Shown: positions 1,095 through 39,452 of the stretch, piece by piece
Position numbering within the stretch: position 1 is the stretch's first letter
Layout: the number at the start of each line of letters is the position of its first letter
IMG/VR virus record: IMGVR_UViG_3300042303_000471
Location: 1-40,810 of that record
Strand: one strand, 5' to 3'
Source of the DNA: a virus
Length of the DNA stretch: 40,810 nucleotides
Position numbers and translations under genes: made by a program
Notes under the pieces: model-generated
What the model saw: the letters and a program-made list of their open reading frames with translations, nothing else
Told to the model about the DNA's origin: nothing
Database searches by the model: none

Positions 1095-1328
1095 ATGCCC
1101 GGATGCAAGCAGACCTGCCGAATCAAAATCGCCATCACCCGCCCAAGGCAGAAGACCGTGAATCGCCGCTTTGACTGGCGAAGTGGTGCCGTGTTCTTCC
1201 TCCGCGATCTCGAAGGGCCATGCACCGTCGAAGTGGCCTACAAGCACTACTCCACCGGGACGTTCAAGTCCACGCTCCGCGCTGGCCAGAATGGCCGGCG
1301 ACTCGCGCTGAAGGTTGAAGGCATCTAG
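1095..1328 (+). CDS. Small early protein, paralogue of the gene at 317
   Basis: 77 residues. The ATG at 1095 follows GAAAGGACCG (1081-1090), which decides the start; a longer in-frame ORF from 696 lacks such a signal and overlaps the gene before. The sequence is basic with two N-terminal cysteines (residues 4 and 8). From about residue 24 it parallels the protein at 317, sharing F-x-x-R, L-x-G-P-x-T-x-x-V and a glycine near the C-terminus. No known domain. Both copies being placed close to P1 suggests an early host-takeover role, but this is inference. Confidence 0.65.
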   Translation: MPGCKQTCRIKIAITRPRQKTVNRRFDWRSGAVFFLRDLEGPCTVEVAYKHYSTGTFKSTLRAGQNGRRLALKVEGI

Positions 1329-1368
1329 TTCTCACCGCTCCAACACGCCTACAGAAAGGGCACCGCAA

Positions 1369-1920
1369 ATGACCGTCTCCCAACTTCTCGCCGTCAACAA
1401 CGTCTATCGCGCCATCGGAAAGGAGTGCTGGCACTCCGGCACCTCGCAATCGAGGGATGGCAAGACGATCACCGTCAAGCCGAGCGTCTACAAGGTCCGC
1501 ATCGAGGGCCGTGCGGACGGTGGCGTGTGGGTCGTGTCGAAGACCGGGAACCGCAAGTTCTCCGCTTCGCCAGAGAACCTTCACGACAGCAGGCCCGCCG
1601 CGCACGCCAAGGCGCTGTCGCTGTGTCAGTCGCTCCACGGTCAGACCGTCATGGGGCAACTGACCTACCACTACGATCCCAAACCGCAGCCTCGCGTTTT
1701 GTGTGAGTACCGGGCCCGGCCGTTCACTGCTCGCTCGTGGAGCATCGAGTACCGCGAGGGCGGCAAGGGGCAGTGGAAGCGCATCGAGGGGCTTTTCAAC
1801 CTTTCGCCGTGGAAGGCTAAAGACGCGATTCGCCGTCTTCGCGCCAACGACGACATTCCGGGTTTCTGGCGAGTGCCGGGGCAAATAGCATTTATCGAGC
1901 TTTGCATCTACATCGACTGA
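1369..1920 (+). CDS. Hypothetical early protein
   Basis: 183 residues. Start at 1369, 9 bases after GAAAGGG. The protein is basic and rich in tryptophan and tyrosine, with beta-like segments in the first half (residues about 35-60) and a W-K-A-K-D-A-I-R-R-L helix near residue 155. It is not a family I recognise. Its place among early genes suggests host takeover or DNA modification, but nothing in the sequence shows this. Confidence 0.6.
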   Translation: MTVSQLLAVNNVYRAIGKECWHSGTSQSRDGKTITVKPSVYKVRIEGRADGGVWVVSKTGNRKFSASPENLHDSRPAAHAKALSLCQSLHGQTVMGQLTYHYDPKPQPRVLCEYRARPFTARSWSIEYREGGKGQWKRIEGLFNLSPWKAKDAIRRLRANDDIPGFWRVPGQIAFIELCIYID

Positions 1921-1978
1921 TCTGACGGTTTGGCTGATTTCACCTGTTTCACCACTTTTCCACGAAAGGCCGATTTCC

Positions 1979-2344
1979 ATGAAAACCAAGTACCTGTCCA
2001 CCAAGTCGCAACGCCGCATCAAGTCGCTGATCTCCCAGCTCGCCGCGTACATGAGCGACGGGCAGACCTCAGGTGATGCCGAGTCGAGGGGCGAGATCAT
2101 TGCTCTTCTCTACACGCAACCGGTGGGTGGCGGATCGAGGCGTCCGTTTGGCCTGGCCGTCGAGCAAGCAATTGCCGATCTGTGTGTTCACGGCTACGTC
2201 GAATCGATCATTTCGTCCGCAGAGGCAATTGCCGATGGCGGATGGGGATCGCCGAACAAGCCGCAAAACATCGCAAACGGTGGGGCCGATCTGGCGGCAG
2301 CTTTGCTCGAGGAGGCCGAGCGCCGGGACCGGGAGACGATTTGA
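1979..2344 (+). CDS. Hypothetical early protein
   Basis: 121 residues; start after GAAAGGCCG at 1964-1972. Predicted mostly helical, with a basic N-terminus and an acidic C-terminal helix. The stop codon overlaps the start of the GIY-YIG gene, so the two are co-translated. No recognised domain. Confidence 0.6.
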   Translation: MKTKYLSTKSQRRIKSLISQLAAYMSDGQTSGDAESRGEIIALLYTQPVGGGSRRPFGLAVEQAIADLCVHGYVESIISSAEAIADGGWGSPNKPQNIANGGADLAAALLEEAERRDRETI

Positions 2345-2715
2345 TGCCAGCCAAGCGGAAACGCCGAAGCGACAGAAATCACGCGATCTACGAAATCCGA
2401 TGCACCGCAACAAAACAGGTCTACATCGGAATAACCGTGATCCGTGGCAGAGCAGTGAAAAAGAGCATTCGGAAGCGGTGGGTCCAACACCTCTACGACG
2501 CGAGGGGCCGCAAGGAAGTGGCCTTCAAACACGCTCTTCATCGTGCCATCGTTCGGCACGGAGAGGAGTCGTTTGTCCATCGGGTTCTGACCGTGGTGCG
2601 AGGCAAGGAGGAAGCGCACCTGATCGAGTTGAAGATGATTCGCCGCCGAAAGCCTGCCCTCAACGTCGAGGGTACGGCATCGAAGCGGAAGGCAACCAAG
2701 AGGGTTTCACGATGA
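2344..2715 (+). CDS. GIY-YIG family endonuclease
   Basis: 123 residues, almost entirely one GIY-YIG nuclease domain. The two signature tyrosines are in A-I-Y (14-16) and V-Y-I-G (27-30); the catalytic arginine is probably Arg45 in K-R-W-V-Q-H and the metal-binding glutamate is Glu90 in G-K-E-E-A-H. The first glycine of the signature is alanine, a variation seen in the family. The start is fixed by the ATGA overlap with the previous stop. It could be a free-standing homing nuclease, a host-DNA degrading enzyme or a DNA-processing nuclease; no intron or intein is visible nearby, so a phage nuclease role is favoured. Confidence 0.8.
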   Translation: MPAKRKRRSDRNHAIYEIRCTATKQVYIGITVIRGRAVKKSIRKRWVQHLYDARGRKEVAFKHALHRAIVRHGEESFVHRVLTVVRGKEEAHLIELKMIRRRKPALNVEGTASKRKATKRVSR

Positions 2716-3206
2716 CAGGTTTGTATGTGTTGACCGTAATCCGATTCAGCCAGTCGGAGGTTCCGACCGTCGAGAGTGTGCGTCTGTTCAAGTCCAGGGC
2801 GGCACTCAACGTCGTCGCTGTTTCGATGAAGAGCCCACCTCTCACGCCCGGCCACAGCTACAGCATCCCGGAGGCCGGGATCAAGGTTTGCTGTGATGGG
2901 CCCATTCCCGCCGAAGACTCGTTCTATGCAGTCAAGTGCACCGTGCGAGGCACCGAGTTCATCCTTCGATCCGACTGGTCCGAGCCGGCCGCAATGATCG
3001 AGGTGTGGGAGTCAAACCAGTGGTTGCTCAACGGTTCCTACGTGGGCGACTTCATGGATGACAGGACTGATCTGGCCGAGAACCAAGCGATCTCCGCCAT
3101 GGCATACCACATCCGCCGCGAGCTCAAGGACTGGACGTCGCAAGACCTGCGGCTCTCGCTGCTTCACCAGATGACTCGCCGCATCCCAAGTGACCGCAAC
3201 AACTGA
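2712..3206 (+). CDS. Hypothetical protein, co-translated with the GIY-YIG nuclease
   Basis: 164 residues, starting in an ATGA overlap with the nuclease stop. The first 90 residues look beta-rich, with a short hydrophobic strand at the N-terminus; the last 40 are helical and charged. No family recognised. The overlap implies balanced expression with the nuclease, possibly as a partner. Confidence 0.6.
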   Translation: MTGLYVLTVIRFSQSEVPTVESVRLFKSRAALNVVAVSMKSPPLTPGHSYSIPEAGIKVCCDGPIPAEDSFYAVKCTVRGTEFILRSDWSEPAAMIEVWESNQWLLNGSYVGDFMDDRTDLAENQAISAMAYHIRRELKDWTSQDLRLSLLHQMTRRIPSDRNN

Positions 3207-3217
3207 AAGGGTGATCC

Positions 3218-3637
3218 TTGAACAACCTCAACACCATCGGCCTGAAAGGCTGGCTCTACATGACAGACAGAGAACGCAACGCTCGCGAGACGGTATCGAG
3301 CGGAAAGATCGAGATTCCTGCGGAGTTTGCGAGCATCGCCGCCAACTGGCACGGAGGCCAGGCGTCCATGCTGTATGCCGTGGCATCGACCGGATCGCTG
3401 TCGAGAGGCAGTATCCGACCGCAAGTCCGCGACTACGACACCGGGGCCGGCAGGCAAGCAGACGACGCTGAGTGGATTCATGGGCTTGCCGAAACCCTGT
3501 CCAGTGAGCTTTCCGACTGTCTCCACATGATCGACATGGGGAACGACATCGACGGTGACCGTGACACCATCGTGAGGTTCAAGAACTACATCGACGAAAT
3601 TGCCGGCGCGATCGAAGACCACATCCTCCCCGTCTGA
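3218..3637 (+). CDS. Hypothetical acidic early protein (TTG start)
   Basis: 139 residues from the TTG at 3218, preceded by GAAAGG 7 bases upstream. An alternative ATG at 3260 has a second GAAAGG upstream, so either start is possible. The C-terminal half is helical and rich in Asp and Glu (residues about 80-135). I do not recognise it. Confidence 0.55.
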   Translation: MNNLNTIGLKGWLYMTDRERNARETVSSGKIEIPAEFASIAANWHGGQASMLYAVASTGSLSRGSIRPQVRDYDTGAGRQADDAEWIHGLAETLSSELSDCLHMIDMGNDIDGDRDTIVRFKNYIDEIAGAIEDHILPV

Positions 3638-3658
3638 ACCAAGAAAGGACCGAATGCC

Positions 3659-4462
3659 ATGAAGGCAAAGAGAGTCAGGGCGCCGCGCAGGCGGCCACGC
3701 GAGTTGATCGGGATCGTTCTGCACCGGGGCATCTCCCCTGGCACAGGGCATCCGTACGCGGTGATTGCGACGCTTGAGAGTCGCAACAGGAAAACGGGCA
3801 ACATGGTGACCGTCTGGATCGTCAGGTCGGACGTCAACCCCATCGAGGACCGGGCCCAGGCGAGGATCGACGGAGTGCATTCGACTTGCTTCCGCTGCCC
3901 GCTGTTTTTTGCCGGATGCTACGTCGAGGTTGAGTACGCACCGCTGAACATCTGGAAGGCTTTTGATGCTGGACGGTACGAAGAGTACGACAGCGAGAAA
4001 CACGACAAGATGCTTCGCTCGCGAACGATGCGGTGGGGCGGATATGGCGATCCGGTGCTAGTGCCGATCGACAAGATGGAGAGGCTTTGCGAGATCGTTG
4101 TTGGGTGGACCGGGTACACGCACCAGTGGGATCAGCCCGAGTACCAGTGCTACCGCTCGCTGCTCATGGCATCCGTTCATTCCATTGCCCAACGCGACCG
4201 TGCGTGGGCTCTGGGCTGGAGAACCTTCAGGGACTACGACTCCCTCAAGGCCGAACCAGCAACGCGAGGTGAGTGTGGCTGCCCCGGCTCTGACGAGCAG
4301 GGCAATCGGTTGCAGTGCATCACGTGCATGATTTGCGACGGGGCCGACCGCCCTGTCGGGCATCGACAGAGGGCGAGCGTCGTGGTCGTGCGACACGCCA
4401 ATGCCGTTGCCACAAAGAAGCTGCGGAAGAACCTCCGCATCGGCAAGGTTTCGTTCGAGTGA
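3659..4462 (+). CDS. DUF7227-like phage protein with cysteine clusters
   Basis: 267 residues; start behind GAAAGGACCG. It matches a family I know from many tailed phages, usually annotated DUF7227 or hypothetical: K-T-G-x-M-V near residue 46, a C-x2-C pair followed by G-C-Y (residues about 77-87), A-P-L-x-I-W-K-A, G-x-x-G-D-P, W-T-G-Y-T-H-Q-W (about 150), G-W-R-T-F and a C-terminal cluster of cysteines (about 207-226). Two Cys clusters in conserved places suggest a metal or Fe-S site. The biochemical role is unknown. The family name is from memory and should be checked. Confidence 0.65.
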   Translation: MKAKRVRAPRRRPRELIGIVLHRGISPGTGHPYAVIATLESRNRKTGNMVTVWIVRSDVNPIEDRAQARIDGVHSTCFRCPLFFAGCYVEVEYAPLNIWKAFDAGRYEEYDSEKHDKMLRSRTMRWGGYGDPVLVPIDKMERLCEIVVGWTGYTHQWDQPEYQCYRSLLMASVHSIAQRDRAWALGWRTFRDYDSLKAEPATRGECGCPGSDEQGNRLQCITCMICDGADRPVGHRQRASVVVVRHANAVATKKLRKNLRIGKVSFE

Positions 4463-4485
4463 CCCTAACCAAGAAAGGCCGAAGA

Positions 4486-4851
4486 ATGGCTGCGAAGAAG
4501 CTGAAGCGTGGCGAGATCATGCCACGGTGGACGATTGTCGAGAAGGCTACGATCCTGAACGTGATCGAGGTTTGCAACGGCGGCAGCCTGCTGTCAGCGC
4601 GAATGCTTCACGACAGGGGCATCCCGATGCGACTGATCGAGCGGCACATTGCCACGTTCAAGGTGGCGATGCGGAATGCAGACGGCAGCGTCGATGACCG
4701 TGTCGAGGGTGTGCATAGCCTCGACTTGCTCCGCGGCATCTGTTCGGACCTTGGGCTTCGACCCAGGGTCACGACCGGGCCAGAGACAGACGCTGTGGCC
4801 TGCAAGGTGGCGATCATTGCCCACTTCGGCCAGATGAAAGCGAGGGTGTGA
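4486..4851 (+). CDS. Hypothetical protein, possibly DNA-binding
   Basis: 121 residues. The start is behind GAAAGGCCG. The N-terminus is lysine-rich, and residues about 20-55 could form a helix-turn-helix-like helical bundle. The stop overlaps the next ATG (TGATG). No family recognised. Confidence 0.55.
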   Translation: MAAKKLKRGEIMPRWTIVEKATILNVIEVCNGGSLLSARMLHDRGIPMRLIERHIATFKVAMRNADGSVDDRVEGVHSLDLLRGICSDLGLRPRVTTGPETDAVACKVAIIAHFGQMKARV

Positions 4852-5003
4852 TGGCAAAGAGGCCTTCGTGGTGGCGACCGGACATGACCGATCTGGAGCG
4901 AGAAGAGTACCGCGAGTACCTGCTCGGCGAAGACGATCGATCCGACGATGACCACCGCGACAACTACGACGATGAGCCAGAGAACGACAAAGAAGCAAAG
5001 TGA
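4851..5003 (+). CDS. Very small acidic protein (50 residues)
   Basis: The ATG overlaps the previous stop (TGATG) and the frame runs 50 codons to a TGA at 5001. The N-terminus is aromatic and basic (W-W-R-P near residue 8) and the remainder is strongly acidic, with many Asp and Glu. This resembles DNA-mimic or adaptor mini-proteins of phages, but no match is recognised. The overlap with its neighbour is the best evidence that it is real. Confidence 0.55.
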   Translation: MAKRPSWWRPDMTDLEREEYREYLLGEDDRSDDDHRDNYDDEPENDKEAK

Positions 5004-5011
5004 CCGCGAGT

Positions 5012-5042
5012 GCCGGCGAGGGGTGTGTTGCCTCTCGCCGGC
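5012..5042 (+). terminator. Hairpin between the 50-residue gene and the ligase
   Basis: GCCGGCGAG (5012-5020) pairs perfectly with CTCGCCGGC (5034-5042) over a 13-base loop. There is no T tract, so this may be an mRNA processing or stabilising stem rather than a full terminator. Confidence 0.4.
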
Positions 5043-5064
5043 AACGCTTTGGAGCAAGAAGGCT

Positions 5065-5895
5065 ATGAGCAAGTACGCAGGCAGAACCCAGGACTACCGC
5101 AACCTCACCAGCATCGACGATGACCTGTCGAGGTGGGACATCGTCCAGCCGAAGCATGACGGCTGGTGGGCGAGGGTTGTGATCGGCAAGGCAAACGACC
5201 GCAGTGCGGAAATCTATTCCCGCCAGGCGCAGCTGAAGGACCGCAAGCCCGTTGGCAAGGGATGCCCAAAGATGACCCTGATCGGGGAGTTCATCCGCGG
5301 CACCTCTCGCGCGACAACTGGCGTCGAGGCCGGGCTGGAGGAGTGCGTTGTCGCGTTCGACATCGTGGAGCTGGACGGTGCTGTTGTCGCTGAGTCGCTC
5401 ACCTACAAGCGTAGGCTCGACCTGATCGAGCGAGTGACCGCTCACGCGGATTGGCTGGTTCCGGTGGTGACGAGGCCGATCTCATTCGCGCCTGCGATGT
5501 GGGAATCGTCCGTGATCAAGGGCGGTGCCGAAGGCCTGGTGTTCCGCAACTCGCGAGACACCTACTCGGACGGCACGATTGGACGCCTCAAGCGCGAGTT
5601 CACGATGGACTACGTCGTGATGCGGCTCGAGGAGGGTAAAGGCAAGCTGGAAGGCATGTGCGGCGTGTTGGTCTGTGGCTTGTACGAGGGCGGAAAGCTG
5701 GTTGAGAAGCTCCGCGTCGGCGGCGGCATGAGCAACATCATGCGGATGGAGTTCTGGAACAGGCCCCGCGAGGTGATCGGGCAGGTGATCGAGGTGAAGG
5801 GCTGGCAGTTGTTTGAGACAGGTGCCATGCGGCACCCGCAATTCGTCAGGTTTCGCAGCGACAAGGTTCCGACCGAGTGCCAGTGGAGTAAGTGA
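5065..5895 (+). CDS. ATP-dependent DNA ligase
   Basis: 276 residues, the size of a minimal phage ligase (nucleotidyltransferase plus OB-fold). Motif I is P-K-H-D-G-W-W with the AMP-accepting lysine at residue 30. Motif III is visible as L-I-G-E-F, IIIa as V-A-F-D-I-V, IV as E-G-L-V-F and V near K-R-E-F-T-M-D. The C-terminal third carries the OB-fold with G-K-L-E-G and the R-H-P-x-F-V-R-F-R end typical of motif VI. It seals nicks during replication and recombination. The start at 5065 removes the overlap with the gene before; an upstream frame from 4948 has no better signal. It opens the DNA-metabolism block. Confidence 0.9.
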   Translation: MSKYAGRTQDYRNLTSIDDDLSRWDIVQPKHDGWWARVVIGKANDRSAEIYSRQAQLKDRKPVGKGCPKMTLIGEFIRGTSRATTGVEAGLEECVVAFDIVELDGAVVAESLTYKRRLDLIERVTAHADWLVPVVTRPISFAPAMWESSVIKGGAEGLVFRNSRDTYSDGTIGRLKREFTMDYVVMRLEEGKGKLEGMCGVLVCGLYEGGKLVEKLRVGGGMSNIMRMEFWNRPREVIGQVIEVKGWQLFETGAMRHPQFVRFRSDKVPTECQWSK

Positions 5896-5954
5896 AAGTT
5901 GGCTCGATGTTCGATGTTCGATTGGTTCGATTTCACCATGAATGGAGAGATGGC

Positions 5955-6941
5955 ATGACCGAGCAGAAGTTCAATGAGTTGCTGGCCGAGTACAAGATGT
6001 CCGTCGTGATCCCTGTGCGGCCCGACGGACAGGGCTGGGGGCAGATCAATATGCCCGACGGCACCGTGAGGGATCGTTGGCGTGGAGGTCAGAAGCTCCG
6101 CGATCAAGCGGACTACCTGATCTTTGAGGCGAAGGCGATCCTTGGCACGGCCGAGGCGAGCCCGAGGAAGGCCTCGGAGAAGCCCAAGGCCGCGCCTGCA
6201 AAGGCCGAGGCATCGAAGCCTGCGAAGGCGACCAAGCCGAAGCTGGGGACGCCGGGCGAGGAGCTGAAGAAAGTGGTCGAGGGAACCTCCAAGAAGGCAG
6301 CCGTCGACGCACCGAAGGCCCCTGCTGCAAAGAAGGCCGATGATGGGCTGTCAGGTCAGTCGCTCAGGGAGAGCGTGAAGAAGGCGCTCGCCCAGGCCGC
6401 AGAGGCATCGTTCAGCGGAGGAGCGATCAAGCCCATCGAGGTGCCGAAGGGAGTGGACTTCTCCAAGCAGCTCAGCGACGAGGCGAAGAAGAAGGCCGCA
6501 GAGCGCGCTCGCGCTGCGGAGAAGAGGGCGATGAAGAAGGCAAACGCTGCCGAGCAGGATGCGGAGCGGTCGCTGGCTTCCTCGCCGGACGACGATGACA
6601 TCATGGATGCGTTCTCGGCTCCAGTCACCAAGCCCAAGGCGAGCCCAGGTAAAGCCTCGGCAAAGCCCAAGGCTCCTGCGGTGGGCAATGGTCCGAAGCC
6701 AGCGGCCAAGAGCATCGAGGATCGGATTCTTGAGGCTCTGGCGGACGGCCCAGCAGGCAAGGCAGAGCTTTGGAAGCGAACGAGCATCAGCGAAGTGACG
6801 CTGGTGCGGAAGCTCGGCGAGCTGGCCCGCGCCGGGCTGGTGCGATGGACTGGAGAGGAGGGCAAGACGGTGTCGGGGACCAGCTATCGCGTCTACGAGC
6901 TGAAGGCTGCGGCCAAGGGCAAGGGTAGGACAAAGCGTTGA
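5955..6941 (+). CDS. K/A/P-rich linker protein with C-terminal winged helix
   Basis: 328 residues from the ATG at 5955, which has GGAGAG 7 bases upstream; a GTG at 5892 overlapping the ligase stop is an alternative. There are three parts. A short N-terminal domain (1-60) is followed by a long low-complexity region rich in Lys, Ala and Pro (about 65-250), like histone H1 tails. The C-terminal winged-helix domain (about 255-320) contains the pattern I-L-E-A-L...A-E-L-W-K-R-T...L-V-R-K-L-G-E-L. It is probably a DNA-binding protein that bridges or regulates. Promoter P(csrA) overlaps its stop codon. Confidence 0.65.
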   Translation: MTEQKFNELLAEYKMSVVIPVRPDGQGWGQINMPDGTVRDRWRGGQKLRDQADYLIFEAKAILGTAEASPRKASEKPKAAPAKAEASKPAKATKPKLGTPGEELKKVVEGTSKKAAVDAPKAPAAKKADDGLSGQSLRESVKKALAQAAEASFSGGAIKPIEVPKGVDFSKQLSDEAKKKAAERARAAEKRAMKKANAAEQDAERSLASSPDDDDIMDAFSAPVTKPKASPGKASAKPKAPAVGNGPKPAAKSIEDRILEALADGPAGKAELWKRTSISEVTLVRKLGELARAGLVRWTGEEGKTVSGTSYRVYELKAAAKGKGRTKR

Positions 6942-6966
6942 CCATAGGACCCCCAAGGGCTAAAAT
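6938..6966 (+). promoter_or_regulatory. Promoter upstream of csrA (TTGACC - 17 nt - TAAAAT)
   Basis: Near-consensus -35 TTGACC (6938-6943), 17-nt spacer and -10 TAAAAT (6961-6966), overlapping the stop of the previous gene. It resembles the promoter at 38261-38289: both start TTGACCAT and have GGGCTA across the -10 border. It gives csrA and the recombination genes their own transcript with a leader of over 100 bases. Confidence 0.75.
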
Positions 6967-7032
6967 GCTTGCAGGATGGGCATCGGCATGGACGGTCGTT
7001 GCACCTCGCCAGCATGGAGGCCGGCATTTACG

Positions 7033-7068
7033 AACGGCGGGCGTTGCACGGATGCAGCGTCCGCCGTT
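7033..7068 (+). promoter_or_regulatory. GGA-loop hairpin in the csrA leader (candidate CsrA site)
   Basis: A 15-bp stem (13 Watson-Crick pairs and two G-U pairs) closes a 6-base loop reading ACGGAT. CsrA proteins prefer a GGA in a hairpin loop within A-N-GGA, which this loop gives exactly. It lies in the leader between the promoter and csrA, so autoregulation or CsrA sequestration is plausible. It could also be an attenuator, but no T run follows. Confidence 0.55.
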
Positions 7069-7267
7069 TGTCTTGCATAGGAGTTTCGTCATGGGCCATG
7101 GGCCTTCTGATCCGAGCATTTGGGACCGACTTGAAGGCATCTCGACCCCGAACGTGATCGTTCGCGGCGAAGCAGTTGACCGAGGAAGGCATCTTGAAAG
7201 AGTTGCCGGAAAACAAGACGGCGTCGTGCAGCGCATGCCCGACGCTCTCAAGAACAGGGAGTTACCG

Positions 7268-7468
7268 ATGTTGGTTGTAACCAGAAAGGAAGGGCAGTCC
7301 ATCACTATCGCGAGCCTGCTGGTCAGGATCACGGTCGTGAGCCTCAGAGGAGGGGCTGTCAGGATTGGTGTCGAGGGTCCCGAGGGACACAGGGTTCTTC
7401 GGTCGGAGCTTCTCGAAATTGATGGAGCCGATGCTTCGCATGACCCCAAGAAGGGAAGGTTGAATTGA
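7268..7468 (+). CDS. csrA: CsrA-family RNA-binding translational regulator
   Basis: 66 residues; a full-length CsrA/RsmA fold. It begins M-L-V-V-T-R-K-E-G-Q-S, has the V-R-I-G-V strand at 31-35 and the R-V-L-R-S-E-L-L end. Arg6 and Arg45 correspond to the RNA-contacting arginines of CsrA. The family binds GGA motifs in mRNA leaders as a dimer. GGGAG lies 5 bases before this ATG. An in-frame ATG at 7091, behind AGGAG, would add 59 unrelated residues; the canonical family begins at 7268. The stop overlaps the TTG start of the exonuclease, tying it to the recombination operon. The extension could be a real longer form. Confidence 0.88.
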   Translation: MLVVTRKEGQSITIASLLVRITVVSLRGGAVRIGVEGPEGHRVLRSELLEIDGADASHDPKKGRLN

Positions 7469-8382
7469 GCGCTTTGAATGGTGAGCTTCTCACGCCGGCA
7501 CAGATGAAGGCGCGAGCGAAGTGGCTTGAGGAGAGGAAGTCTGGCCTCGGCGGCTCGGACGCTGCCGCAGCCATCGGCGTTGATCCGTACCGTGACCCTC
7601 TTGCCCTGTGGGGCGAGAAGGTTGGTCTGATCGAGGCCGATGACCTCTCTGCAAACGAGGTTGTCGAGTCCGGCAACGCGCTGGAGAAGGCAATCGGTGA
7701 GTGGTATGGCAAGAAGTCTGGCCGGAAGGTGAAGGCAGGCAAGCCTTTCACCATCCTTCGCCACGCGGAACTGCCGTGGATGTTCGCAAGCCTCGACGCT
7801 ACCCAGGTCGTGGATGGCGAGCGGTCAGTGGTTCAGATCAAGAACACCTCGTTCGATGCCGACGCATGGGAGGAAGCCCTGCCGGCTCACTACGAGGTTC
7901 AGTTGGCTCACGAAATGATCGTGGCGGGAGTCACGCACGGCTCGCTGGTCGCCCTCCATAGGGGCCAGAGGCTTCGCGTGTACGACCGGAAGCTCGACCC
8001 TGACTTTGCGTCGATGCTGGTCAAGGCCGAGCGTGAGTTTTGGGAGAACGTGACGAGTCAGACTGCCCCGGCACCTGGGCCAAACAGCGCCGAGGCAGTG
8101 AAGTCTCTGTTTCCGAGAGCCGAGATCTCCGACATCATCGCACTGCCACCAGAGGCCGATGACCTCGACGCTGAGTTGCAGTCGCTGAAGGAGCAGATGA
8201 AGGCTCTCGGAGCTAGGGCCGAAGAGATCGAGTCGCAGATCAAGTACTGGATCGGTAGTCGCGAAGGCGGCATGACCCAGCAGGGCATCCGCTTCAATTG
8301 GAAGGGTTCGGTTTCACACTACGAGGCGAAAGAGGCGAGAGACGTCTACGTTCGCCGCTTCACTAGGAGCAAGGGCAAATGA
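7465..8382 (+). CDS. YqaJ/lambda-exonuclease-type recombinase nuclease
   Basis: 305 residues, from a TTG overlapping the csrA stop, with GGGAAGG upstream. The N-terminal signature is G-L-G-G-S-D-A-A-A-A-I-G (27-38), then E-x-G-N-A-L-E (about 68-74), then L-D-A-T (110-113) and V-V-Q-I-K-N (122-127). The metal-site residues would be Asp111, position 124 and Lys126; position 124 is Gln where the family usually has Glu. The C-terminus is a coiled-coil-like helix (about 225-260). It should resect double-stranded ends for the RecT annealase encoded next to it. Confidence 0.85.
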   Translation: MSALNGELLTPAQMKARAKWLEERKSGLGGSDAAAAIGVDPYRDPLALWGEKVGLIEADDLSANEVVESGNALEKAIGEWYGKKSGRKVKAGKPFTILRHAELPWMFASLDATQVVDGERSVVQIKNTSFDADAWEEALPAHYEVQLAHEMIVAGVTHGSLVALHRGQRLRVYDRKLDPDFASMLVKAEREFWENVTSQTAPAPGPNSAEAVKSLFPRAEISDIIALPPEADDLDAELQSLKEQMKALGARAEEIESQIKYWIGSREGGMTQQGIRFNWKGSVSHYEAKEARDVYVRRFTRSKGK

Positions 8383-9278
8383 GTACCGGCAAGACGCTGA
8401 GCGTTCGTGAGAAGGTCATGACCGTCCGCGGCATGATCGAGAAGATGAAGGATCAGATCACGCAGGCTCTGCCTCGGCACATGACTGCCGAGCGGATGAT
8501 CCGCGTGGTCAACACGGCGATCCAGAAGACGCCTTCGCTGCTCGACTGCGAGCCGAGGTCGCTGATGGGTGCGATCGTGCAGGCGAGCCAGCTTGGTCTG
8601 GAGCCTGACGGTGTGCTGGGGCATGCGTACCTGATTCCGTTCAACAACCGGAAGTCGGGGAAGCTGGAGTGCCAGTTCATGCCTGGCTACAAGGGTCTGA
8701 TCGAGTTGGCTCGACGGTCGAGCCAGATCAGCACGATCTACACCCATGTGGTGTACGAGAATGACGAGTGGGATTTCCAGTACGGTCTGGAGCAGAAGCT
8801 TTCCCACAAGCCCACCGATGGTGCACCGGGACTTCCGATTGCTGTCTACGCAGTCGCGAGGCTCCGTGACGGTGGCGTCCAGTTTGAATGGATGTGGAAG
8901 CGAGAGGTGGAGACGATTCGCCAGCAGTCGAAGGCTGGCGGCAGTGGCCCATGGGTCACGCACTGGGACGAGATGGCGAAGAAGACGGCGCTTCGCAGGC
9001 TGTGCAAGCTGCTGCCGACTTCGCCGGAACTGTCTCGGGCTGTGGCTCTGGACGAGCAGGCCGAGTCTTCCGTTCCGCAGGGTCTGTCGTTCCTGGCGTC
9101 GATGCCCGGCAGCCAGGGCAACGATGACGATGTGATCGAGGTGGAAGCGGATGCCGACGATGCTCCGGTTGCCATCGAAGACCAGAGGGGCGATGCCTAC
9201 GAGGCCCCGCCGGCTGGTGTTCAAGAGGCTGTCGCCTCGATGGAGCGTAGGGCTGGTCGCAAGCCGGCAAAGCAGTAA
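8379..9278 (+). CDS. recT: RecT-family single-strand annealing protein
   Basis: 299 residues starting in an ATGA overlap with the exonuclease. It shows the RecT core: L-P-R-H-M-T near residue 30, S-L-x-x-A-I-V-Q-A-S-Q-L-G-L-E-P (about 62-77), the Q-F-M-P-G-Y-K-G segment (about 96-105) and the D-E-M-A-K-K-T-A-L-R-R motif (about 195-207). The C-terminal 70 residues are acidic and low-complexity, as in many annealases that bind SSB or partners. With the preceding nuclease it forms a phage exonuclease-annealase pair. Confidence 0.92.
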   Translation: MSTGKTLSVREKVMTVRGMIEKMKDQITQALPRHMTAERMIRVVNTAIQKTPSLLDCEPRSLMGAIVQASQLGLEPDGVLGHAYLIPFNNRKSGKLECQFMPGYKGLIELARRSSQISTIYTHVVYENDEWDFQYGLEQKLSHKPTDGAPGLPIAVYAVARLRDGGVQFEWMWKREVETIRQQSKAGGSGPWVTHWDEMAKKTALRRLCKLLPTSPELSRAVALDEQAESSVPQGLSFLASMPGSQGNDDDVIEVEADADDAPVAIEDQRGDAYEAPPAGVQEAVASMERRAGRKPAKQ

Positions 9279-10965: not shown

Positions 10966-11043
10966 GGGTGCGGCCCGGAGTGGTGATGCCTGTGTCGCGC
11001 TGACGCATGGGCATCCGCTGAAAGCACTCCGGGCCGCACACCC
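10966..11043 (+). ncRNA. Long nested inverted-repeat element
   Basis: A 14-bp perfect outer stem (TGCGGCCCGGAGTG at 10969-10982 with 11025-11038) encloses an inner stem of GATGCC/GGCATC extended by six more pairs around a 5-base loop. The whole forms a long rod in a gap without a gene. It could be a structured RNA, a strong terminator, or a DNA site for packaging or recombination. The structure is seen in the sequence; the role is not known. Confidence 0.5.
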
Positions 11044-13291: not shown

Positions 13292-14530
13292 ATGAAGGTG
13301 GTCATGAAGCGGGTCGATGAGGTGCTGCCATATGGCAAAAATCCCCGGAGAAACGCGAAGGCCGTCGACGCTGTGGCTGAGTCGATCCGACAGTTTGGCT
13401 GGAGACAGCCGATCGTCGTGGACAAGGAGCTGGTGATCATCGTTGGCCACACTCGGTGGCTGGCGGCGCAGAAGATGGGCATCGAGAAGGTGCCCGTCGT
13501 AGTCGCCACAGACCTCTCTCCCGACAAGGTGAAGGCCTACCGACTCGCAGACAACAAGACCAACGAACTGGCTGAGTGGGACGTCGGCCTTCTCTCCGCA
13601 GAACTGAAGGAGCTGTCCGAGGCCGGGTGGGGCGACTTCTCATCGCTCGCGTTCTCGACCACCGAGGTAGACCAACTCCTCTCTCCGCTGGCAGAGAAAG
13701 TCTTTGAGGCCGCCAGGCCTACGCTCGCGTCTGCTGCCCAGGAGCAAATTGAAGAGCCGGAAGAGCAGGCACCTCCTCGGGACTACATCAACGAGGAGAT
13801 CGAAGACGATGACGAGCCGCACCAAGTAGACGAAACCAAAGACTCGATCACGACCTATCGAGCGGACGCCACGTTTTCAGCAGGGAACTGGCTTGGCTTC
13901 CCCGATGTGCTGCCGGGCATGCTCTGGGATGGCGACATCCGCCGCGTCTACATCAAGGACGCAGACGTCGCCCCGACGCAGTTGATCTCGTGGAGTTCGG
14001 TCGGCGTTGACGATCGCATGCGTGGGCACGTGATCAACTTCTACGCTGACGATCACCGCTTCGAACACGCGATCTGGGACAACGCGATCACGTTCCTCGA
14101 CAAGATGGCGGTGATCCGCCCTGAAGCTCTGGTGATGCCAGACTTCTCGACATGGACCGACGAGCCAACAGCCTTCAACATCTGGAACACGTACCGTGCG
14201 AGGTGGTGTTCGCGATACTGGCAGGAAGCCGGCCACAAGATCATCCCCAACATCAACCTCTGTGACGAAGCCAGTTGGGAGTGGATCTTCCTCGGCTACC
14301 CTCCATCAATCCCGACAGCAATGGTGCAGTGCCGCAACGGATTCGATGACAAGGCCAAGCAAGTTTTCTGCCGAGGCATGCACGAATGGTGCAAGAGGAT
14401 CAAGACCAAGAAGATTTTCGTCTACGGTGGAGAGCATCGCGAGTGGCTTGAGCCAAACCTACCGAAGGGCCCTGAGTACGTCTGGTTCATCAGCTACCAC
14501 AAGGCCAGGAAAGATGCCGGACTGTTCTGA
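13292..14530 (+). CDS. ParB/sulfiredoxin-fold domain fused to DUF4417
   Basis: 412 residues; GAGGA lies 6 bases before the ATG. The N-terminal 110 residues are a ParB-like nuclease domain: N-P-R-R-N near 17-21, I-R-Q-F-G-W-R-Q-P-I at 32-41, the G-H-T-R-W-L-A-A motif at 52-59, and A-D-N-K-T. After an acidic linker (about 145-180) the rest matches DUF4417: F-S-A-G-N-W, W-N-T-Y-R-A-R-W, P-N-I-N-L, F-L-G-Y-P-P. In related phages the ParB domain is often joined to a DNA methylase; here DUF4417 takes that place. The role may be DNA modification or protection before packaging. Confidence 0.7.
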   Translation: MKVVMKRVDEVLPYGKNPRRNAKAVDAVAESIRQFGWRQPIVVDKELVIIVGHTRWLAAQKMGIEKVPVVVATDLSPDKVKAYRLADNKTNELAEWDVGLLSAELKELSEAGWGDFSSLAFSTTEVDQLLSPLAEKVFEAARPTLASAAQEQIEEPEEQAPPRDYINEEIEDDDEPHQVDETKDSITTYRADATFSAGNWLGFPDVLPGMLWDGDIRRVYIKDADVAPTQLISWSSVGVDDRMRGHVINFYADDHRFEHAIWDNAITFLDKMAVIRPEALVMPDFSTWTDEPTAFNIWNTYRARWCSRYWQEAGHKIIPNINLCDEASWEWIFLGYPPSIPTAMVQCRNGFDDKAKQVFCRGMHEWCKRIKTKKIFVYGGEHREWLEPNLPKGPEYVWFISYHKARKDAGLF

Positions 14531-38636: not shown

Positions 38637-39014
38637 ATGCTGACCCGCATCCTCTTGCTCGCACTGGCCGCAACGCTCCTCGCATCGACAGCCGAGGCCG
38701 GCCCTCTTCGCCGCAGGTCCCGCAGCAGTGGCAGCGTGGCAACCTGCACCGGGCCGAACTGCGCGGCATCCGGCAACACCTCCTCGGCGCAGGGTGTCGC
38801 CGAGATCATGGCGGCTCGCGGCGGGCTCGGGCACTTTGGCGGCAACGGTGGCCGCGAGGGTGTTGGCGAAGGCTCGACGCGAGAGGCGGCGATCCAGGCC
38901 TGCTGCTTCCATCCTCAGAACGGGCGGCGAGACAGCAAGCTGGATATGAGTCGCGCTGACGTTGGTGCCGCGCAGTCTTCCAGCGGACGGTGGTACGCTT
39001 GCATCCGTGAGTAG
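38637..39014 (+). CDS. Secreted protein with signal peptide, host-like
   Basis: 125 residues. Signal peptide of about 20 residues (L-L-A-L-A-A-T-L-L-A-S-T-A-E-A, cut after A-E-A). The mature part has Q-G-V-A-E-I-M-A-A-R-G, G-H-F-G-G-N-G-G, E-G-V-G, A-C-C-F and G-R-W-Y-A-C, a pattern I associate with secreted planctomycete proteins; this is from memory. CGGAG lies 11 bases upstream. It and the next gene form a small unit with its own promoter and terminator. Confidence 0.6.
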   Translation: MLTRILLLALAATLLASTAEAGPLRRRSRSSGSVATCTGPNCAASGNTSSAQGVAEIMAARGGLGHFGGNGGREGVGEGSTREAAIQACCFHPQNGRRDSKLDMSRADVGAAQSSSGRWYACIRE

Positions 39015-39065
39015 TCTTCCGCGTTGTGCGGTGTTCGGTGTCACGTTCACGAAAGGGTTGATCGC

Positions 39066-39452
39066 ATGATTTCTCGAATGGTGTTTGCCGTGGCCTTCGT
39101 GCTGGCAGTGGCTGGGTCGCTGCTGGCCGGCGCTCCGGCCGATACGTCGGTGTCTGGTTGCCATGGCCGCAAGTCGTGCCACGGCGAGGACCAGGCCCAG
39201 GCCGATGTGCCGTCGTGCCATGGAGCTGCTGTCGCTTCGTGCCACGGCGAAGAGCCCGAGAGCGGATGTCATGGTCGCGCGAGTCGAACGCATCGTCGTG
39301 CGGCCCGGGTCCAGTGCCGCGCGTCTTCTCGGGCCGCTCGAGCGGAGTCCAGGGCGACCAGGGCAGGGCTCAAGGCCAGTGCGGCCAGTTGCCATGGGGA
39401 AGCTGAAGCGGCCAAGGAGTGCGACTGCGGGGACGCCTGCGACTGTCGCTGA
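39066..39452 (+). CDS. Secreted protein with repeated Cys-His-Gly motifs
   Basis: 128 residues. Signal peptide of about 23 residues, then six CHG motifs (S/G-C-H-G), an Arg/Ala-rich central stretch and an end reading C-D-C-G-D-A-C-D-C. Repeated CHG suggests metal binding; similar secreted proteins occur in planctomycetes (my recollection). GAAAGGG lies 9 bases upstream. It may be a host-derived accessory gene. Confidence 0.6.
   Translation: MISRMVFAVAFVLAVAGSLLAGAPADTSVSGCHGRKSCHGEDQAQADVPSCHGAAVASCHGEEPESGCHGRASRTHRRAARVQCRASSRAARAESRATRAGLKASAASCHGEAEAAKECDCGDACDCR

What the first reader, a model, noticed from the sequence alone, without database searches (positions are those of the whole stretch)
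6938..7468. Phage-encoded CsrA with a GGA-loop hairpin in its own leader
csrA has its own near-consensus promoter and a leader of over 100 bases with a 15-bp hairpin whose loop is ACGGAT. This is the ideal presentation of a CsrA site. The gene is translationally coupled to an exonuclease-RecT pair, which suggests post-transcriptional control of recombination or reprogramming of host mRNA use.
Basis: partly seen in the sequence, partly recalled or inferred. Interest (0 to 1): 0.75.

Follow-up and report, generated by a model that had tools for sequence, protein, structure and literature searches.

The report
Phage csrA operon with GGA-loop leader
A group of uncultured phages carries its own copy of a bacterial RNA-binding regulator (CsrA) at the head of its DNA-recombination operon, and the RNA in front of the gene carries a cluster of predicted binding sites for that regulator, so the phage probably throttles its own recombination genes at the RNA level.

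Summary
A CsrA-family gene (7268-7468; Pfam E 1.5e-14) precedes, with overlapping ORFs, a lambda-exonuclease/YqaJ nuclease and recT. A 10/12 sigma-70-like promoter and a ~120-nt leader lie upstream. The hairpin is real (7030-7071, 17-19 bp, loop CGGA / ACGGAU) and is the longest uninterrupted hairpin in the record. It is not alone: the leader has five A(N)GGA motifs, three in predicted hairpin loops. By that strict count no other place in this record has three. In three related phages (61% exonuclease, 75% RecT identity) the order csrA-exo-recT with overlapping ORFs is kept. Two of them carry an equally unusual leader (3-4 loop GGAs, different stem sequences), and these three leaders are the only such windows in four genomes on both strands; 0 of 2000 shuffles matched in each case. 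The third relative keeps two of the stems but has lost every loop GGA. Nine other phage csrA genes lack the feature.

Best explanation: negative autoregulation of csrA by CsrA binding its leader, as in E. coli csrA, carried to exo-recT by translational coupling. Binding is inferred, not shown. Phage CsrA and csrA autoregulation are each known; combined in a phage recombination operon they are a new variant.

The parts
6938..6966 (+). sigma-70-like promoter TTGACC-17-TAAAAT; overlaps the stop codon of the upstream ORF 5892-6941
   Evidence: 10 of 12 matches, only one in 3.6 kb, 0.4 expected; consensus match only
6967..7090 (+). csrA-operon leader with five A(N)GGA motifs (GGA at 6974, 6990, 7016, 7050, 7080)
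6984..6998 (+). small hairpin CGGC-AUGGACG-GUCG, GGA (6990-6992) in the loop
   Evidence: MFE fold, unpaired probability 0.99-1.0
7010..7024 (+). third leader site CAUGGAGG, GGA 7016-7018, predicted unpaired (0.85-0.93)
   Evidence: counted as hairpin-loop GGA in the MFE of the leader
7030..7071 (+). the reported hairpin: 19 pairs with loop CGGA (18 with loop ACGGAU), 3 G-U pairs; GGA 7050-7052
   Evidence: longest uninterrupted hairpin of the record; GGA unpaired probability 1.0
7079..7083 (+). Shine-Dalgarno AGGAG (contains a GGA) for the ATG at 7091
   Evidence: sequence
7091..7267 (+). 59-codon ORF in frame with and without a stop before csrA: N-terminal extension of CsrA or upstream cistron; unresolved
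   Evidence: best of six frames by codon usage, score as for csrA; no family; no phage match better than E 0.7
7256..7270 (+). internal RBS and start AGGGAGTTACCG-ATG, resembling the csrA RBS of L007 (AAGGAGTTGCCA-ATG)
   Evidence: sequence comparison
7268..7468 (+). csrA, 66 aa
   Evidence: Pfam PF02599 E 1.5e-14; PHROG CsrA-like; below NCBIfam equivalog cut-off
7465..8382 (+). YqaJ / lambda-exonuclease family nuclease, TTG start overlapping the csrA stop
   Evidence: PF09588 E 8.5e-21; TIGR03033 above cut-off
8379..9278 (+). recT single-strand annealing protein, overlapping the exonuclease stop by 4 nt
   Evidence: PF03837 E 1.9e-52; NF007351 above cut-off

Best explanation
The leader is an RNA operator for CsrA. 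The phage csrA mRNA starts near 6973 (inferred). CsrA dimers bind the GGA loops of the leader (6990, 7016, 7050) and bridge to the GGA of the Shine-Dalgarno sequence at 7080, excluding ribosomes. Translation of the first cistron, and through overlapping start/stop codons that of csrA, exonuclease and recT, is thereby repressed once CsrA has accumulated. This is negative feedback that gives a burst and then a set level of recombination proteins. Shown here: the genes, their overlap and conserved order, and the non-random cluster of loop GGAs in three of four phages. Inferred: RNA binding, repression, coupling strength, and whether phage or host CsrA is the ligand.
For: CsrA family membership, with the Arg equivalent to E. 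coli R44 conserved in all five phage proteins. Purifying selection on csrA among relatives (dN 0.03-0.04, dS 0.8-1.1). Same order csrA-exo-recT with overlapping ORFs in L004, L006 and L007. The csrA leaders of window, L006 and L007 are the only 130-nt windows with 3 or more A(N)GGA in hairpin loops in four phage genomes, both strands (about 14,900 overlapping windows); 0 of 2000 shuffles each. In L006/L007 the loops keep AUGGA/AAGGA while stems change (2 pairs changed on both sides, 3 on one; 94% of cells paired, 33-46% when slid). Loop GGAs lie at similar distances from the start codon in window, counted from ATG 7091 (-102,-76,-42), L006 (-105,-78,-39) and L007 (-106,-79,-41), p about 0.004 for random placement. 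Nine other phage csrA genes have no loop GGA in the 130 nt upstream. E. coli CsrA represses its own translation through four leader sites, one over the SD (PMC7652899).
Against: No binding data. L004 keeps stems 1 and 2 but has no loop GGA, although its CsrA is nearly identical in the RNA-binding region. The window's stems share no recognisable sequence with the relatives: a covariance model of their leaders does not find it. The 17-19 bp stem is far more stable than typical CsrA ligands. Pair-change counts rest on three sequences, and 84 of 500 column shuffles do as well. Loop assignments are single-sequence MFE folds, and the looser ensemble criterion does not single out the window's leader. 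In the window, 59 codons lie between the leader and the csrA RBS.
Confidence: 0.6

Rival explanations
1. The leader is a sponge. The ~100-nt 5' RNA, possibly ended at the 7030-7071 hairpin and its U-rich tail (UUUGUCUUG), acts like CsrB/RsmY and titrates host CsrA, freeing host or phage mRNAs during infection; control of csrA is secondary.
For: Five A(N)GGA in 124 nt is a density reminiscent of Csr/Rsm sponge RNAs; a terminator-like match falls inside the hairpin; L007 has UUUUCU after its second hairpin.
Against: Terminator-like matches in the region are no more frequent than in shuffles (3 found, 2.5 expected). In L006/L007 further GGA sites lie beyond hairpin 2, up to the csrA SD. Sponge RNAs of E. 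coli carry many more sites (CsrB binds ~18 CsrA subunits; PMC7652899). No Rfam match.
Confidence: 0.15
2. The 7030-7071 hairpin is an intrinsic terminator, attenuator or RNase III processing site between the upstream operon and csrA; its loop GGA is incidental.
For: GC-rich stem with a U-rich tail; all genes here lie on the + strand and the upstream ORF ends at 6941; very long stem, atypical for CsrA ligands.
Against: Does not explain the two further loop GGAs nor the equally exceptional GGA-loop leaders in L006/L007, where the upstream genes point away and the hairpins are short.
Confidence: 0.15
3. The leader hairpins bind another factor, or act as a DNA operator or RNA thermometer, and GGA reflects A/G-rich composition around ribosome-binding sites.
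For: L004 keeps stems while its two loops changed in parallel to ACGAAA/UACGAAC with a CCGAAG linker, as if recognised by something other than CsrA.
Against: 0 of 2000 shuffles in three leaders; only csrA leaders stand out under the strict count; the complementary strand of the window hairpin folds poorly.
Confidence: 0.1

Closest known systems
E. [quoted passage not shown] Yakhnin et al. 2011 as reviewed in PMC7652899)
   Same: csrA leader with several GGA sites, at least one in the Shine-Dalgarno sequence, others in hairpin loops; predicted repression of its own translation
   Different: Phage gene; operon continues into exonuclease and recT; the window has one very long stem and 59 extra codons before csrA; binding not shown
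CsrA repression of glgC (hairpin-loop site just upstream of the SD, dimer bridges to the SD; PMC7652899)
   Same: GGA hairpin loop about 30 nt upstream of an SD GGA
   Different: Target here is csrA itself; much longer stem
[quoted passage not shown] 2017, reviewed in PMC7652899)
   Same: CsrA sites in front of a short ORF that precedes the regulated gene
   Different: Here the short ORF is in frame with csrA without a stop
Phage-encoded CsrA/Rsm proteins (30 phages in PMC7366521; Pseudomonas F116/PA8 group; Burkholderia JC1/Lessieviruses, PMC9144972)
   Same: CsrA-family gene on a phage genome; in F116 csrA also lies a few genes before an exonuclease
   Different: 36-38% identity to the Pseudomonas phage proteins; in JC1 csrA sits between virion genes; nine other phage csrA genes lack the GGA-loop leader
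CsrT/CsrA paralogues on Legionella integrative elements (cited in PMC7366521)
   Same: Mobile-element-borne CsrA that may regulate the element's own genes
   Different: Conjugation genes, not a recombination operon

Membership tests
CsrA/RsmA protein family | CsrA domain (PF02599) above the gathering score | tested here: met
   54.1 bits against 27
CsrA/RsmA protein family | csrA equivalog score (TIGR00202) | tested here: not met
   42.9 bits against a cut-off of 70.1: a divergent family member, not an assigned orthologue
CsrA/RsmA protein family | RNA-contact residues: N-terminal strand and the Arg equivalent to E. coli R44 | tested here: met
   MLVxTRKEG and VxRxELL invariant in five phage proteins, aligned with E. 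coli HREEI in 1y00; position 4 is Val in the window and Leu in E. coli
CsrA-autoregulated csrA leader | Several GGA sites in hairpin loops plus one over the SD | tested here: met
   met in window, L006 and L007, not met in L004
CsrA-autoregulated csrA leader | CsrA binds the leader and represses translation | not testable with these tools
   needs gel shift, footprint and reporter
CsrB/RsmY-type sponge RNA | Separate, terminated, non-coding transcript with many GGA loops | tested here: inconclusive
   terminator-like match no better than shuffles; no Rfam match
Phage exonuclease-RecT recombination pair | YqaJ/lambda-exonuclease nuclease next to RecT | tested here: met
   TIGR03033 and NF007351 above cut-offs

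The most novel reading that the evidence does not exclude
These phages use a self-limiting CsrA loop as an RNA-level timer for their recombination genes, and in the L004 lineage the whole set of loop motifs was switched in concert from A(N)GGA to CGAA on unchanged stems. If real, this would be a natural change of recognition motif by a CsrA-controlled RNA or its regulator.
Probability: 0.12. Interest if true: 0.75.

Novelty: new variant of a known kind. Interest (0 to 1): 0.5.

Why it matters
Phage CsrA proteins have been listed since 2020, but what they do for the phage is open (PMC7366521 and PMC9144972 both call for experiments). Here comparative sequence gives a concrete, testable target: the phage's own mRNA, heading its recombination genes. 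It would show post-transcriptional feedback control of a phage recombination operon by a captured bacterial regulator. L004 is a natural loop-mutant control on nearly the same protein.

Tried and rejected
Rfam: no match at gathering threshold in the window, only chance matches at high E. Covariance model of the relatives' leader: finds only its own three members, not the window. AlphaFold of the 125-aa form: mean pLDDT 44.5, uninformative. DNA pattern of hairpin 2 in all viral contigs: besides the known relatives, only places without csrA. Genome contigs with the exonuclease: nothing; with RecT: two RecT loci, neither with a csrA match, so the host stays unknown. Plasmid csrA matches: weak, 41-51%. 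Consensus promoter in front of relatives' csrA: none. Considered and rejected: csrA ORF 6938-7468 as one protein, because translation would have to run through the leader and relatives start at the equivalent of 7268.

Full report
WHAT IS THERE. The window is one linear virus record of 40,810 bases. A CsrA-family gene lies at 7268-7468 (Pfam PF02599, E 1.5e-14). Its stop overlaps the TTG start of a YqaJ/lambda-exonuclease family gene (7465-8382), whose stop overlaps the ATG of recT (8379-9278). Two starts are plausible: ATG 7091 behind AGGAG (7079-7083), giving 125 aa, and ATG 7268 behind AGGGAG, giving the canonical 66 aa. The latter RBS resembles that of the relative L007 (AGGGAGTTACCGATG against AAGGAGTTGCCAATG). 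The intervening 59 codons have the best of the six frames by codon usage, with a score close to that of csrA itself and below most genes of the record; they match no family.

THE HAIRPIN. The stem is longer than reported: 7030-7071, 19 pairs around CGGA (18 around the hexaloop ACGGAU), the longest uninterrupted hairpin on either strand of the record. Three of its pairs are G-U on the + strand, so the complementary strand folds much worse (-20.9 against -31.0 kcal/mol); it behaves as an RNA hairpin rather than a DNA palindrome. The core CANGGANG agrees with the RsmE/CsrA hexaloop, but most SELEX ligands have four or fewer contiguous pairs and very stable structure may be a disadvantage (PMC7652899). 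'Ideal' is therefore too strong.

NOT ONE SITE BUT A CLUSTER. Between the promoter-like site (TTGACC-17-TAAAAT, 6938-6966; only one in 3.6 kb, 0.4 expected) and ATG 7091 there are five A(N)GGA motifs, at 6974, 6990, 7016, 7050 and 7080. Three are in predicted hairpin loops and one is in the Shine-Dalgarno sequence. No dinucleotide shuffle out of 2000 reaches three loop GGAs or five motifs.

RELATIVES. RecT and exonuclease searches brought in three related phages: L004 (identical over the 8.7-kb locus to L005), L006, and L007 (likewise identical to L014). They share terminase (71%), portal, capsid and early genes with the window, and all carry csrA-exo-recT with overlapping ORFs. L006 and L007 have three GGA-loop hairpins each: CCCACUC-GAUGGAUG-GAGUGGG / UCG-AUGGAU-CGA; GCCCGC-GAAGGAU-GUGGGC; AGCGUC-GAUGGACU-GACGCU / GCGGU-GAUGGAAU-GCCGC; plus GGA in the SD. 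Between L006 and L007 the loops keep AUGGA or AAGGA while stem pairs change, two on both sides and three on one. With three sequences this is not statistically strong: 84 of 500 column shuffles do as well, though slid structures fall from 94% to 33-46% paired cells. Loop GGAs lie at similar distances from the start codon in window (from ATG 7091), L006 and L007 (p about 0.004 for random placement), although the window's stems are otherwise unrecognisable to a covariance model.

GENOME-WIDE TEST. In four genomes, both strands (about 14,900 overlapping 130-nt windows), the only windows with three or more A(N)GGA in MFE hairpin loops are the csrA leaders of window, L006 and L007. Under a looser criterion (any GGA, ensemble-unpaired) the relatives' leaders stay at the top for most settings (L007 at both window sizes, though tied with two other places at 130 nt; L006 at 130 nt), but the window's leader is tied with three other places at 100 nt and drops out of the top at 130 nt. 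Nine other phage csrA genes have no loop GGA in the 130 nt upstream.

THE EXCEPTION. L004 keeps stems 1 and 2 almost unchanged but has lost every loop GGA. The two loops and the linker all read CGAA (ACGAAA, CCGAAG, UACGAAC), and the first AAGGAUG became AAUGACG. Its CsrA is nearly identical to those of L006/L007 over 50 residues, and the sequence is seen in two contigs. Either the loop has been lost there, or the recognition motif changed. This is the strongest evidence against a simple story and an excellent natural control.

HOW IT MOST LIKELY WORKS. By analogy with E. coli csrA, whose leader has four CsrA sites including one over the SD, and glgC, where a hairpin site tethers CsrA next to the SD (PMC7652899), the phage CsrA probably represses its own leader and, by translational coupling, exo-recT. 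Binding, repression and coupling strength are inferred. Sponge and terminator readings remain possible. The host is unknown, so effects on host mRNAs cannot be assessed.

NOVELTY. Phage CsrA is known (30 phages in PMC7366521; JC1 in PMC9144972; the F116 group), and csrA autoregulation is known. The combination, a phage csrA heading a coupled exonuclease-recT operon with a comparative signature of autoregulation, was not found in the papers searched. It is rated a new variant of a known kind.

Noticed in passing
L004:2816-2899 (record G001, csrA at 11027): Stems of two leader hairpins conserved with L006 while both loops and the linker changed in parallel from GGA to CGAA; same sequence in a second contig (L005).
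   Followed up: partly
window 7091-7267: 59-codon ORF in frame with csrA without a stop; no counterpart in relatives; N-extended CsrA isoform or upstream cistron.
   Followed up: partly
window 39024-39452: 142-aa ORF with many repeats of a C-H-G motif (SCHG/GCHG) near the right end of the record; no Pfam or NCBIfam match.
   Followed up: partly
window 38637-39014: 125-aa ORF with a Gly-rich stretch and paired cysteines; recalled resemblance to small planctomycete proteins is only a lead for the host; no Pfam, NCBIfam or plasmid match.
   Followed up: partly
window 1315-6941 against L004/L006/L007: Early genes upstream of csrA that lie on the + strand in the window lie on the opposite strand in the three relatives: the block is inverted relative to csrA-exo-recT.
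   Followed up: no
window 13292-14530: ParB N-terminal domain fused to DUF4417, 58-75% identical in the three relatives.
   Followed up: no
L140 (Pseudomonas phage F116) 3001-5754: In F116 csrA also lies in the early region five genes before an annotated exonuclease, an independent association of csrA with phage recombination genes.
   Followed up: no
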